64,000 nucleotides of DNA from assembly GCF_003387075.1 (NCBI RefSeq), contig NZ_QUMQ01000001.1:744001-808000 (forward strand). The letters run 5' to 3'. This document shows positions 7,978-10,484 of the stretch, in pieces. Within the stretch, counting starts at the first letter, position 1, and every line of letters starts with the position of its first letter. The stretch is from Asanoa ferruginea (GTDB lineage: Bacteria; Actinomycetota; Actinomycetes; Mycobacteriales; Micromonosporaceae). The notes under the pieces are model-generated. The model was given only the letters and a program-made list of their open reading frames with translations, made no database searches and was not told the DNA's origin. The translations under genes and the position numbers were made by a program.

Positions 7978-8361
7978 ATGACCGACCCCTCCGGTCTGCT
8001 ACGGCTGCTGGCCGAGACCACCAGCGCGCTCGACTCTGTCCGAAGTGGTGAGTCGCCGGTCGGCACCGGTTTCGCGGCCGACGGCCTGATCGCGGTGCAC
8101 GCGGCTCTGCCGGGCCGGGTGACCGGCATCCGGCTCGACCCGGCCGCCCTCGACCTGCCGCCGGCGGAGCTGGCCGCGGAGCTGACCGCCGCGGTGAACG
8201 CGGCCCTGGCCGACCTACCCGTTCACCAGCCCGATCTTGCTGGGCTCGGTGCCGAGCTGCGCGACATCCAATCGCGAGCGTCGTCGCAACTCTCCTTGTT
8301 CACCTCGGCGCTGCTCGACGCACAGGCGGCGCTGGCCCGGCGGGCGGGCGATCCCCGATGA
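7978..8361 (+). CDS. YbaB/EbfC-like small protein of the toxin locus
   Basis: Protein of 127 residues with a YbaB/EbfC-like layout: a helical start, a short beta section (LIAVHAALPGRVTGIRLDPAALDL) and a long helical C-terminus. Such proteins commonly precede WXG100/ESX effectors in actinobacteria and are thought to act with them. The ATG at 7978 is preferred; an in-frame ATG at 7951 would add nine residues, and neither has a good ribosome-binding site. The stop overlaps the next start (ATGA, 8358-8361), making it the first gene of a coupled five-gene toxin/immunity operon. Confidence 0.75.
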   Translation: MTDPSGLLRLLAETTSALDSVRSGESPVGTGFAADGLIAVHAALPGRVTGIRLDPAALDLPPAELAAELTAAVNAALADLPVHQPDLAGLGAELRDIQSRASSQLSLFTSALLDAQAALARRAGDPR

Positions 8362-8678
8362 GCAGCCCGGGTTTCCACGTCGACCCGCAGGCGCTGGGTG
8401 TGTCGGGTGCGTCGCTGGAGAGGGTGGGGACCGAGTTCGCAACCGCGTTGCGCGCCTTTCAGTCGGAGCTGGCCGGCTTCGGCGCGCCCTGGGGCAGTGA
8501 CGAGATCGGCTCGCTGATCGGTGCGGCCCATGAGGAGGTCGCTTCGTGGGCCTTCGAATGCTTCTCGGCGGCAGCGTCGGAGGTCGCAGCGGCCGGCGTC
8601 GACCTGGGCGGCATGGCGGCCGGCTACCGGGAGGTCGAGGAACAGATCCGCGGCGCGTTCGAGGCCTTCGGAGGGTGA
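8358..8678 (+). CDS. WXG100/ESX-like small helical protein
   Basis: A 106-residue, signal-less, mostly helical protein of the WXG100 size class. It begins FHVDPQALGVSGASLERVG, has a PWGSDEIG turn near residue 44 (a W-x-x variant of the WXG turn), and ends with a helix carrying YREVEEQIRGAF, which resembles the YxxxD/E secretion tail of ESX substrates. It is likely an ESX/type VII partner or adaptor for the toxin encoded two genes downstream. It overlaps the YbaB-like gene by 4 nt and is followed within 1 nt by the next start. Confidence 0.7.
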   Translation: MSSPGFHVDPQALGVSGASLERVGTEFATALRAFQSELAGFGAPWGSDEIGSLIGAAHEEVASWAFECFSAAASEVAAAGVDLGGMAAGYREVEEQIRGAFEAFGG

Positions 8679-8679
8679 T

Positions 8680-9174
8680 GTGTCACTCGAACTGCCCGGG
8701 GAATTGCGGTCTTTGTTGGGGGTGCTCGGCTACACGTGGCCGGAGGCCGACGAAGACAAGCTCTTCGAGATGGGCGAGGCGTGGCTCCGTTTCGCGACCA
8801 CGCTGGACTCACTGACCTCATCGGCGCAGGCGGAGGCCGCGCCGGTCTGGTCGGGTAACACGGGCGCGGACATCGCCGCCTTCCAGCGGTGGTGGACCAA
8901 TGAGGACAGTCCCCTGGCGAGCATGCGCGACGGCATGCCCGCGGCGGTGCTGACGGGCACGGGCCTGATCATCTGCGGCACGATCGTGTTGGCGTTGAAG
9001 GTCGCTGTCATCGTCCAACTGACGATCCTGGCCGTCGAGATAGCCCAGGCGATCGCCACGGCAACTGTCACGGTCGGCGCGTCGCTGGCGGAAATCCCGA
9101 TCTTCCAACAGGTGAGCCGCATTGCCGTAGGCGCTCTCTTCGATCAGGTCATCTCCACGCTTCTCGAGGCCTGA
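8680..9174 (+). CDS. WXG-type toxin carrier with hydrophobic C-terminal half
   Basis: A 164-residue protein from GTG 8680, with GGAGGG at 8670-8675. Residues about 1-75 are helical with a VWSGNTGADIAAF turn (near 52-65), resembling the WXG/PPE-like delivery domain of actinobacterial polymorphic toxins. Residues about 90-135 are strongly hydrophobic. The stop TGA (9172-9174) is followed, in the same reading frame, by TCG and then the ATG of the EndoU gene. Carrier and toxin may therefore be a split version of a single toxin. An overlapping ATG at 8678 leads into another frame and was rejected. Confidence 0.72.
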   Translation: MSLELPGELRSLLGVLGYTWPEADEDKLFEMGEAWLRFATTLDSLTSSAQAEAAPVWSGNTGADIAAFQRWWTNEDSPLASMRDGMPAAVLTGTGLIICGTIVLALKVAVIVQLTILAVEIAQAIATATVTVGASLAEIPIFQQVSRIAVGALFDQVISTLLEA

Positions 9175-9177
9175 TCG

Positions 9178-9678
9178 ATGGCTAGGAAGAGTGGTGGCGG
9201 CAAGCTCATGCGGGCCGCGTTGCAATATCTGAAGAAGGCCAACCAACGAGGTGAACGCCATGGCCGCATGCGGCCATGGGCCCGCGATCACGTATTCAAG
9301 GGCCACATCAAGCCGGGCGCTCCTACCGGGTCAGGCTTCCACTACCGTCCAGGCGGGCAGGATTGGCCAGGCCGTCGGATCAAGACGTCGACTGTCACGC
9401 GTGACCCCGACACCGGGTTGTATCAGGCGGAGGTGGAGTATTTCGACCGGAGCGTGCCGCCGGACGGGGCGTGGCGGCCGAAGTCAGGTCACGGCGGCGT
9501 CAGCACATTCTTCCCGGATCACTGGAGTCCGAGCGAGGTGGACAACGCAGTCAACACTGCGTTCCATCGTTCGAGCCCGGTACCGGGCACGGACCGGTGG
9601 CGCGGCGACTACCGTGGCATAACAATTGAGGGCTTTTACCACCAAGGCGGCGTTGGGCACGGTTGGCCGGTGTTCTGA
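9178..9678 (+). CDS. EndoU-type nuclease toxin domain
   Basis: A 166-residue basic protein resembling the bacterial EndoU RNase toxin module found at the C-terminus of contact-dependent and type VII toxins. Residues 1-40 form a Lys/Arg-rich linker. The catalytic-looking core contains His43 (FKGHI), His55 (GSGFHYRPGG), Lys102, the STFFPDHWS segment (109-117, like the STxFP-xxW motif of the family) and Tyr154. Its ATG (9178) has GAGG 8 nt upstream. It lies in the same frame as the preceding carrier, separated only by TGA-TCG. It probably cleaves RNA in target cells; the next gene is the candidate immunity protein. Confidence 0.75.
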   Translation: MARKSGGGKLMRAALQYLKKANQRGERHGRMRPWARDHVFKGHIKPGAPTGSGFHYRPGGQDWPGRRIKTSTVTRDPDTGLYQAEVEYFDRSVPPDGAWRPKSGHGGVSTFFPDHWSPSEVDNAVNTAFHRSSPVPGTDRWRGDYRGITIEGFYHQGGVGHGWPVF

Positions 9679-9692
9679 CAATGGAGACCCCA

Positions 9693-10142
9693 ATGAGCTT
9701 CATAAGCTTCTCGCTCGACCGCTACAACCTCCCGTTGTTCGACGTGACTGACGCGCGCTACACCGCCCTCGGCGCATGGATCATCGGTGACATCTCGGTT
9801 TATATGAGGGTCTGTCTAGACGCTCTAGCAGCTGTCGACGACGCGGCGAGCGGACGGCCGGTAGAGCCGTGGGGCAGCGACCACTACGAGGTCACGATCG
9901 ACGCCAACGGGCTCCGGTTCACCAATCTTCACGCCGGCGAACGGGGCGACTATCCGCTGGCCGAAGCACGCCCGGCGATCGAGGAGTACTGGTCGTTCCT
10001 TGTCGCCCGTCCTGAGAAGCCGGGGCTCGTCCGTTCATACTGGCCCGAGCTGCCCACCTGGCAAGCCGAGCTGCGGCAATGGGAGCAGACCTGGAACCGC
10101 CGGCACCCTTACCGCGGCCGGCTCTTTCCGGCCACGGCCTGA
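9693..10142 (+). CDS. Probable immunity protein for the EndoU toxin
   Basis: A 149-residue acidic, soluble protein with no domain I recognise, located 14 nt after the toxin stop. ATG 9693 is chosen because GGAG (9683-9686) lies 6 nt upstream; the ATG at 9681 overlaps that site. Position and size directly after a toxin, acidic character opposite a basic toxin, and the absence of catalytic motifs suggest that it binds and neutralises the EndoU domain. The function is inferred from context only. Confidence 0.65.
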   Translation: MSFISFSLDRYNLPLFDVTDARYTALGAWIIGDISVYMRVCLDALAAVDDAASGRPVEPWGSDHYEVTIDANGLRFTNLHAGERGDYPLAEARPAIEEYWSFLVARPEKPGLVRSYWPELPTWQAELRQWEQTWNRRHPYRGRLFPATA

Positions 10143-10196: not shown

Positions 10197-10484
10197 ATGG
10201 ATTTGCTGTTCGACGGCGAGATCTTCTTCTGGAAGGGGCCGGCGCCGTGGCACTTTGTTTGGGTGCCCGAGACTGAGTGTCTTGAGTTGGCTGCCAACGC
10301 TGATCTGCTCAGCTATGGGTGGGGGATGATTCCGGTCGCCGCTCGGATCGGTAGCACGGGCTGGACGACCTCGCTCTGGCCCAAGGATGGGCGCTACATC
10401 GTGCCCGTCAAGACGGCCGTGCGGAAGGCCGAACGGATCGACGTCGGCGACCTCGTGACGGTGCGGCTGACGTTGGACGTTTAG
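10197..10484 (+). CDS. DUF1905 domain protein
   Basis: A 95-residue protein matching the DUF1905 beta-barrel family: a start of type FDGEIFFWKGPAPWHFVWVP, the central WGMIPVAARIGSTGWTTSL, and an end GDLVTVRLTLDV. The function of the family is not known. It is not obviously part of the toxin operon (54-nt gap). The stop codon overlaps the stop of the convergent MOSC gene by 4 nt. Confidence 0.85.
   Translation: MDLLFDGEIFFWKGPAPWHFVWVPETECLELAANADLLSYGWGMIPVAARIGSTGWTTSLWPKDGRYIVPVKTAVRKAERIDVGDLVTVRLTLDV

What the first reader, a model, noticed from the sequence alone, without database searches (positions are those of the whole stretch)
8680..9678. EndoU toxin separated from its WXG-type carrier by a single in-frame stop
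Seen directly: the WXG-like carrier (GTG 8680) ends in TGA at 9172-9174. The EndoU-like gene begins at 9178 in exactly the same frame (498 nt = 166 codons apart) with only TCG between. In known polymorphic toxins these two parts are usually one polypeptide. So this is a nonsense-split toxin, a programmed readthrough, or a deliberate two-chain design in which the toxin is loaded by a separate ESX-like partner. An SD-like GAGG 8 nt before the second ATG favours two proteins.
Basis: partly seen in the sequence, partly recalled or inferred. Interest (0 to 1): 0.7.

Follow-up and report, generated by a model that had tools for sequence, protein, structure and literature searches.

The report
Two-gene type VII toxin cassette
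The carrier and the EndoU toxin are two separate genes by design, not one gene broken by a stop: relatives keep them separate with gaps and frames that vary, and the same two-gene layout carries many unrelated toxins, which suggests that these bacteria load short toxins onto a separate export carrier.

Summary
In detail: WXG100_2 carrier (8680-9174, TGA) and EndoU-family protein (9178-9678), same frame, 3 nt apart. The nonsense-split and readthrough readings fail. Of 55 unique EndoU places with a detected carrier, 0 are fused; the carrier is 163-165 codons in 54, its stop is TGA, TAA or TAG, and the toxin is in frame 0 (27), +1 (20) or +2 (8). In the family, 78 of 86 carriers of this subfamily stand alone (160-167 codons); 43 of 77 following ORFs overlap the carrier gene by 8 nt. 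Those ORFs form 25 clusters, with nine Pfam families recognised, EndoU included. A PE-like partner with a type VII-like [YFHW]xxx[DE] motif precedes most carriers; the genome encodes EccB/C/D. The toxins lack Sec-like hydrophobic stretches (0 of 74) but begin with a basic tail (mean +6.4 in 30 residues), which tends to be shared by unrelated toxins behind similar carriers. Best reading: a split, trans-loaded type VII polymorphic toxin; the tail may be the docking tag. Export and docking are inferred, not shown.

The parts
7978..8361 (+). YbaB/EbfC-like small protein gene, first gene of the cassette
   Evidence: Pfam PF02575 E 3e-05, 24.6 bits, just under the cut-off of 25.5 (queried from 7969); homologues lie in the same place in many relatives. 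Start codon chosen by eye.
8358..8678 (+). PE-like/Esx-like partner, 106 aa, with a YREVE motif near its end
   Evidence: Pfam PE PF00934 E 0.00038, 21.1 bits, just under the cut-off of 22; a partner found upstream of 83 of 86 carriers; [YFHW]xxx[DE] in one alignment column in 76 of 83.
8680..9174 (+). Stand-alone WXG100_2 carrier, 164 aa, stop TGA 9172-9174
   Evidence: PF25547 E 4.7e-14; 164 codons in 59 and 160-167 codons in 78 of 86 carriers.
9166..9169 (+). SD-like GAGG inside the end of the carrier gene, 8 nt before the toxin ATG
   Evidence: Read directly; the same letters stand there in 4 of the 5 same-genus EndoU loci L003, L004, L010, L011, L012 (not in L004). An SD-like 4-mer is not general: 15 of 43 of the -8 type and 16 of 34 others.
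9175..9177 (+). 3-nt spacer between carrier stop and toxin start
   Evidence: offset +3 in 9 of 77 and other values, -8 to +26, in the rest.
9178..9291 (+). Basic amphipathic N-terminal tail of the toxin (about 38 residues), proposed docking segment
   Evidence: Net charge and hydrophobic moment; EndoU Pfam match starts at residue 35. Function inferred.
9178..9678 (+). EndoU-type RNase toxin, 166 aa; H38, H55 and K102 invariant
   Evidence: PF14436 E 1.8e-19; H38, H55 and K102 in 24 of 24 and S109 in 23 of 24 EndoU proteins of the carrier survey. Activity inferred.
9693..10142 (+). Putative immunity protein, 149 aa, no Pfam or NCBIfam match
   Evidence: no family; a homologue directly follows EndoU in 58 of 67 unique EndoU places. 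Role inferred from position.

Best explanation
This is one cassette of a polymorphic toxin system whose export carrier and toxin are separate proteins by design. Shown: two genes, kept as two genes across the sampled family, in a tight gene row YbaB-like / PE-like / WXG100_2 carrier / toxin / putative immunity, with ORFs of unrelated families exchanged behind the same carrier subfamily. Inferred: the PE-like protein (bearing the [YFHW]xxx[DE] motif) and the carrier form a helical heterodimer recognised by the ESX machine; the EndoU protein, made next door by coupled translation and kept harmless by the immunity protein, binds that pair through its basic amphipathic N-terminal tail and is exported with it to cut RNA in competing bacteria. 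The shared reading frame here is a feature of one clade of short gaps and has no coding role.
For: 0 of 55 EndoU places with a detected carrier are fused; frames 27/20/8 and stops TGA 29, TAG 17, TAA 9. 78 of 86 carriers stand alone at 160-167 codons; 43 of 77 following ORFs overlap the carrier gene by 8 nt, out of frame. On the carrier tree the frame label needs at least 12 changes, and the 8 extended rows form one side of one branch, support 81. 25 clusters of following ORFs, nine Pfam families over cut-off counting EndoU. Partner motif in 76 of 83 at one column. EccCa/Cb, EccD and EccB in one own-genome locus. Tail: mean charge +6.4 in 74 toxins against +0.3 in 213 control ORFs (mechanical ORFs of at least 150 codons in the same loci) and 0.0 in 73 next ORFs; +6 or more in 73% against 13% of controls; 0 of 74 have a Sec-like hydrophobic stretch; amphipathic z mean 1.3 in the 60 scored. 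Among 2346 pairs with no detected C-terminal similarity, tails score z>4 in 50% of the 42 pairs with carriers at least 70% identical against 1-3% where carriers are under 55%; rank correlation 0.140, highest of 500 permutations 0.126.
Against: No binding, secretion or toxicity was shown. Tail and carrier are DNA neighbours, so linkage alone could make them co-vary; the overall correlation is small, and some shared tails go with carriers only 39-40% identical. Undetected C-terminal homology could add to it. The overlap forces some of the first residues, so residues 6-35 were also counted (+5.7). WXG100-type proteins are often acidic (recalled), so the acidic carrier (mean -9.9) is weak evidence; extended carriers are acidic too. 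In 12 of 67 EndoU places no carrier was detected within 900 nt. 11 of the 20 scanned cargo representatives match no Pfam family, so their toxin role rests on position. Structure prediction never ran, so no model of the toxin or complex exists.
Confidence: 0.7

Rival explanations
1. One ancestral carrier-toxin fusion recently broken by a nonsense mutation; the downstream half survives as a relic or by internal initiation.
For: Same frame and 3-nt gap; carriers with long C-terminal extensions exist in this genome (L089, L085).
Against: No fused EndoU homologue in 55 places with a carrier; the carrier ends at about the same length in 78 of 86; five same-genus relatives share the two-gene layout with TGA or TAA; the conserved EndoU residues are intact.
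Confidence: 0.02
2. Programmed or leaky readthrough of the TGA gives a minor fused product besides the two proteins.
For: In-frame short gaps are common in the window's own clade: 14 of 24 rows at offsets that keep the frame (0, 3, 6, 9, 12), and 27 of 55 EndoU places are in frame.
Against: Relatives use TAA and TAG at the same place and shift the frame, for example +7 in L007 among kin at +6 and +4 in L162/L163; most of the subfamily overlaps out of frame.
Confidence: 0.04
3. The EndoU/immunity pair is an intracellular toxin-antitoxin or a cassette that merely sits behind an unrelated secreted Esx pair; carrier and toxin do not work together.
For: In 12 of 67 EndoU places no carrier was detected nearby, 6 of them with the immunity homologue; the toxin has no signal peptide-like stretch.
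Against: Unrelated ORFs sit in the same slot with tight spacing, and most have a basic tail; tails tend to track carriers.
Confidence: 0.16
4. The basic tail is not a docking tag but serves the toxin after export, for example at the target envelope or on RNA.
For: A basic segment also follows the carrier in 4 of 8 extended carriers (+10 to +12), where no docking is needed.
Against: The other 4 extended carriers have -1 to +3 there; tails of unrelated toxins tend to track the carrier.
Confidence: 0.3

Closest known systems
CpnT with EsxF-EsxE (mycobacterial type VII toxin operon)
   Same: Operon of two small Esx-like genes, then the toxin with its N-terminal secretion domain, then the antitoxin; YxxxE motif and the Esx pair needed for secretion (PMC8092274, abstract and passages seen).
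   Different: CpnT carries its YxxxE motif, secretion domain and toxin in one polypeptide; here carrier and toxin are two proteins and the motif sits in the PE-like partner.
LXG toxins with Lap1/Lap2 (type VIIb, Firmicutes)
   Same: Toxin exported with small WXG100-like partners, one bearing an FxxxD motif (PMC9600955, abstract).
   Different: LXG toxins carry their own N-terminal LXG domain; here the toxin has only a short basic tail and the WXG-type domain is on another chain.
EsaD with EsxB, EsxC, EsxD (Staphylococcus aureus)
   Same: Nuclease toxin exported in a complex with small Esx partners (PMC10653861, abstract).
   Different: The partners bind a transport domain that is part of EsaD; this EndoU protein shows none by Pfam.
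Tox-EndoU of polymorphic toxin systems (Zhang et al. 2012)
   Same: EndoU RNase domain with conserved H, H and S/N/T residues used as a toxin; toxin domains delivered by WXG-type and other routes (PMC3482391, passages seen).
   Different: Toxins there generally have the trafficking domain at the N-terminus of the same chain. The passages shown mention solo WXG domains in some lineages with their own ATPase, and that T7SS toxins occasionally neighbour T7SS components, but not a two-gene WXG carrier plus toxin; the paper was not read whole.

Membership tests
EndoU_bacteria (PF14436) | Profile match over the cut-off, nearly full length | tested here: met
   70.9 bits against 25.3, profile 4-128 of 129
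EndoU_bacteria (PF14436) | Two conserved histidines plus lysine and S/T | tested here: met
   H38, H55, K102 24 of 24 and S109 23 of 24 in the survey's EndoU set; H, H and S/N/T from PMC3482391, lysine recalled; that these residues are the catalytic ones was not tested
EndoU_bacteria (PF14436) | RNase activity and EndoU fold | not testable with these tools
WXG100_2 (PF25547) | Profile match over the cut-off | tested here: met
   53 bits against 27
PE family (PF00934), partner gene | Profile match over the cut-off | tested here: not met
   21.1 bits against 22; therefore called PE-like only
Type VII substrate pair | YxxxD/E-type motif in one partner | tested here: met
   Window partner has YREVE. 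Among 83 partners Y in 42, F/H/W in 35, none in 6; shuffled tails give 39.5 of 83 on average, at most 54
Type VII substrate pair | ESX machine in the genome | tested here: met
   EccCa/Cb, EccD, EccB over their cut-offs
Type VII substrate pair | Export by that machine | not testable with these tools
   Needs secretion assay
Polymorphic toxin system | One trafficking part with exchangeable toxin domains and adjacent immunity | tested here: met
   25 clusters of ORFs behind one carrier subfamily, at least 32 changes of cluster on the carrier tree where 24 is the least possible; immunity homologue in 58 of 67 EndoU places
Polymorphic toxin system | Toxin fused to the trafficking domain | tested here: not met
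   0 of 55 EndoU places; 8 of 86 carriers are extended, the nature of the extension unknown
Programmed stop-codon readthrough | Conserved frame and stop codon across relatives | tested here: not met
   Frames 27/20/8, three stop codons in 55 places

The most novel reading that the evidence does not exclude
A family-wide trans-loading type VII system: one stand-alone PE-like/WXG100_2 carrier pair exports interchangeable toxins that are separate polypeptides and carry only a short basic amphipathic tail as a transferable loading tag, with new toxins acquired by recombination behind the tail.
Probability: 0.48. Interest if true: 0.72.

Novelty: new variant of a known kind. Interest (0 to 1): 0.52.

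Why it matters
In the papers seen here, type VII toxins (CpnT, LXG, EsaD) carry their transport domain in the same chain. A large natural set in which carrier and cargo are split, with many unrelated cargoes, would show what the ESX machine needs from a cargo and whether a short tail suffices; the set gives ready tests for how type VII substrates are loaded.

Tried and rejected
Nonsense split and readthrough: tested by frames, stops and fusion counts and rejected. Sequence search of solved structures with toxin, carrier and both alignments gave no meaningful relative. NCBIfam gave nothing meaningful for carrier, toxin or immunity protein. Acidic carrier as proof of docking: rejected as weak, since extended carriers are acidic too. 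The 8 carriers over 185 codons were first called fused toxins by length alone; a Pfam scan of their C-terminal parts found nothing in 7 and a sub-cut-off ADP-ribosyl cyclase match in 1 (L232), so that they hold toxins is not shown. An SD-like 4-mer before the toxin start is no general feature (31 of 77). Literature: the capped listings of searches showed no title or abstract on a split WXG100_2 carrier plus toxin; only listings, the abstracts and the passages named in Closest known systems were seen, and the library is partial, so absence from print is not shown. Rows dropped: 3 of 77 following ORFs (L167, L192, L228) were left out of the charge, moment and tail counts because the picked ORF looked doubtful, and L171 had none; 14 of 74 tails were not scored for moment; 20 of 24 non-EndoU clusters were scanned by Pfam (L167, L192, L216, L228 not); 3 of 86 carriers had no PE-like partner by profile (L177, L203, L210). 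Carriers beside EndoU were detected by tblastn with the window carrier only, so a divergent one may be missed. A first listing was cut in the middle; one search recounts it. One phylum-wide scan found the carrier at E<=1e-20 in 3 of 296 genomes, own one included, with at most 12 candidates scored a genome; the subfamily seems mostly of this family. Named relatives of the toxin outside Micromonospora and Asanoa include Actinomadura, Longispora and Glycomyces, and four distant records without a detected carrier.

Full report
What is there. The window lies at 744001-808000 of a 9.07 Mb single-contig genome. Its genus is very probably Asanoa: the same-genus genome G018 holds a contig of 120,921 bases, the length of the Asanoa siamensis record that carries a 73% identical toxin. 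At 7978-10142 lie five genes in one direction: YbaB-like, PE-like (starts in a 4-nt overlap), WXG100_2 carrier (starts 1 nt after the previous stop), EndoU (3 nt after the carrier stop) and a putative immunity gene (14 nt on). Pfam supports both domain calls well over the cut-offs.

Is it a split gene? I searched 250 genomes of the family with the toxin; 45 had a match at E<=1e-5, and a named collection gave 14 loci, some of them the same places. After removing duplicates, 67 EndoU places remain in loci L002-L073; 55 have a carrier detected within 900 nt upstream, and none of these 55 is fused to it in frame. Carrier lengths are 164 codons in 49, 163 in 4, 165 in 1 and 175 in 1 (L022, where a deletion seems to have removed the carrier end and the toxin start). 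Stops are TGA 29, TAG 17, TAA 9; toxin frame relative to carrier 0 in 27, +1 in 20, +2 in 8. Close kin differ by one base in the gap: L007 has +7 where its relatives L005, L006, L008 and L009 have +6. A single-nonsense or readthrough reading predicts a kept frame and a fused relative; neither is seen. The excess of frame 0 among EndoU loci is real (27 of 55) and goes with one clade of short gaps; it leaves a small chance for leaky readthrough.

A wider rule. With an alignment of eight carriers (A1) I searched 121 family genomes: 72 had a match at E<=1e-10. All 86 matches at E<=1e-30, from 41 genomes, were parsed: 78 stand alone (160-167 codons; 59 of exactly 164) and 8 are extended (331-365 codons). 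What the 8 extensions do is unknown: 7 match no Pfam family and 1 matches ADP-ribosyl cyclase below the cut-off. Of the 78, 77 have an ORF of at least 100 aa starting within -12 to +33 nt; 43 of these start 8 nt before the end of the carrier gene, as in ATGnnTAR, which puts them in another frame; frames overall +1 52, 0 14, +2 11. This pattern speaks for coupled translation of two proteins (inference). On a carrier tree the frame label needs at least 12 changes and the extended rows one (branch support 81). With seven more distant rows added the 8 extended rows still fall among the stand-alone ones, and one long-framed row (L233) does too, but those added rows are long branches, the root is unsure, and L235 (235 codons) was labelled by length alone.

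Cargo. The 77 following ORFs make 25 blastp clusters; the largest, 24 members, is EndoU. Of the 24 other clusters 20 representatives were scanned: 9 had a Pfam match at E<=0.01, 8 of them over the cut-off and each a different family: GH-E nuclease, YwqJ-like deaminase, DddA-like deaminase, DNA/RNA non-specific endonuclease, Ntox30, nucleotidyltransferase, NucA/NucB DNase and ADP-ribosyltransferase; 11 had none. In the window's own genome six WXG100_2 matches pass the cut-off: four are stand-alone with an ORF behind them (this one, L086, L087, L088) and two lie in long ORFs (L085, L089).

Export parts. Of 86 carriers 83 have a PE-like partner directly upstream; 77 of 83 have [YFHW]xxx[DE] in the last 40 residues against 39.5 on average and 54 at most in shuffled tails, and 76 of 83 have it in the same alignment column. 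Mycobacterial CpnT needs its YxxxE motif and EsxE/EsxF for secretion (PMC8092274, passages), and Lap1 proteins use FxxxD (PMC9600955, abstract). EccCa/Cb, EccD and EccB lie together at about 2.17 Mb of this genome.

The tail. The toxins carry no Sec-like hydrophobic stretch (0 of 74 with a 15-residue mean of 1.6 or more in the first 50). Their first 30 residues have a mean net charge of +6.4 (residues 6-35 +5.7), against +0.3 in 213 control ORFs, 0.0 in 73 next ORFs and +1.5 in 342 internal windows; 73% reach +6 against 13% of controls and 11% of internal windows. The controls are mechanical ORFs of at least 150 codons in the same loci, so some are not genes. The tails are amphipathic beyond their composition (mean z 1.3, 60 of 74 scored). 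Among 2346 pairs with no detected C-terminal similarity, tail similarity rises with carrier identity: tail z>4 in 1% (n 186) below 35% carrier identity, 3% (806) at 35-45%, 2% (1080) at 45-55%, 13% (232) at 55-70%, and 50% (42) at 70% or more. The overall rank correlation is small, 0.140, with 0 of 500 permutations as high (highest 0.126). So recombination seems to swap the toxin domain behind the tail, which leaves the tail with the carrier. Linkage alone would give this too; it hints where the module border is, not that the tail binds.

Verdict. The stop is an ordinary gene end. What the finding points to is a two-chain version of type VII polymorphic toxins, common in this family of actinomycetes and rare in a phylum-wide sample (3 of 296 genomes at E<=1e-20). 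The separation of chains is well supported; joint export and docking by the tail are inferred.

Noticed in passing
L022 (G197) and L025 (G227): Apparent natural deletions at the junction: in L022 carrier residues 1-156 run into EndoU from residue 41 in another frame; in L025 the PE-like gene runs into EndoU and no carrier is detected. They look like decayed cassettes.
   Followed up: partly
L003/L032, L007, L033, L055: Two tandem homologues of the putative immunity gene follow one EndoU gene.
   Followed up: no
L015, L026, L030, L041, L058, L071: EndoU plus immunity homologue with no carrier detected within 900 nt: possible orphan cassettes; in L041 the EndoU match is in two pieces and the immunity homologue holds a stop.
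   Followed up: no
L086:3656-4420: The window's genome holds a DddA-like double-stranded DNA deaminase (E 1.7e-18) in the same two-gene cassette.
   Followed up: partly
window 10197-10484: A DUF1905 gene (E 3.5e-25) lies just behind the cassette and also in same-genus loci L003, L004, L010, L011, L012; probably an unrelated neighbour that marks a conserved place.
   Followed up: no
L033 (Actinomadura barringtoniae): A whole cassette with 57% identical EndoU and two immunity copies in another genus of actinomycetes; possible horizontal transfer.
   Followed up: no
L219, L221, L222, L223, L224, L226, L232, L089: Eight carriers of the same subfamily run on for some 170-200 residues with no Pfam match over the cut-off; they may hold undescribed toxin domains.
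   Followed up: partly
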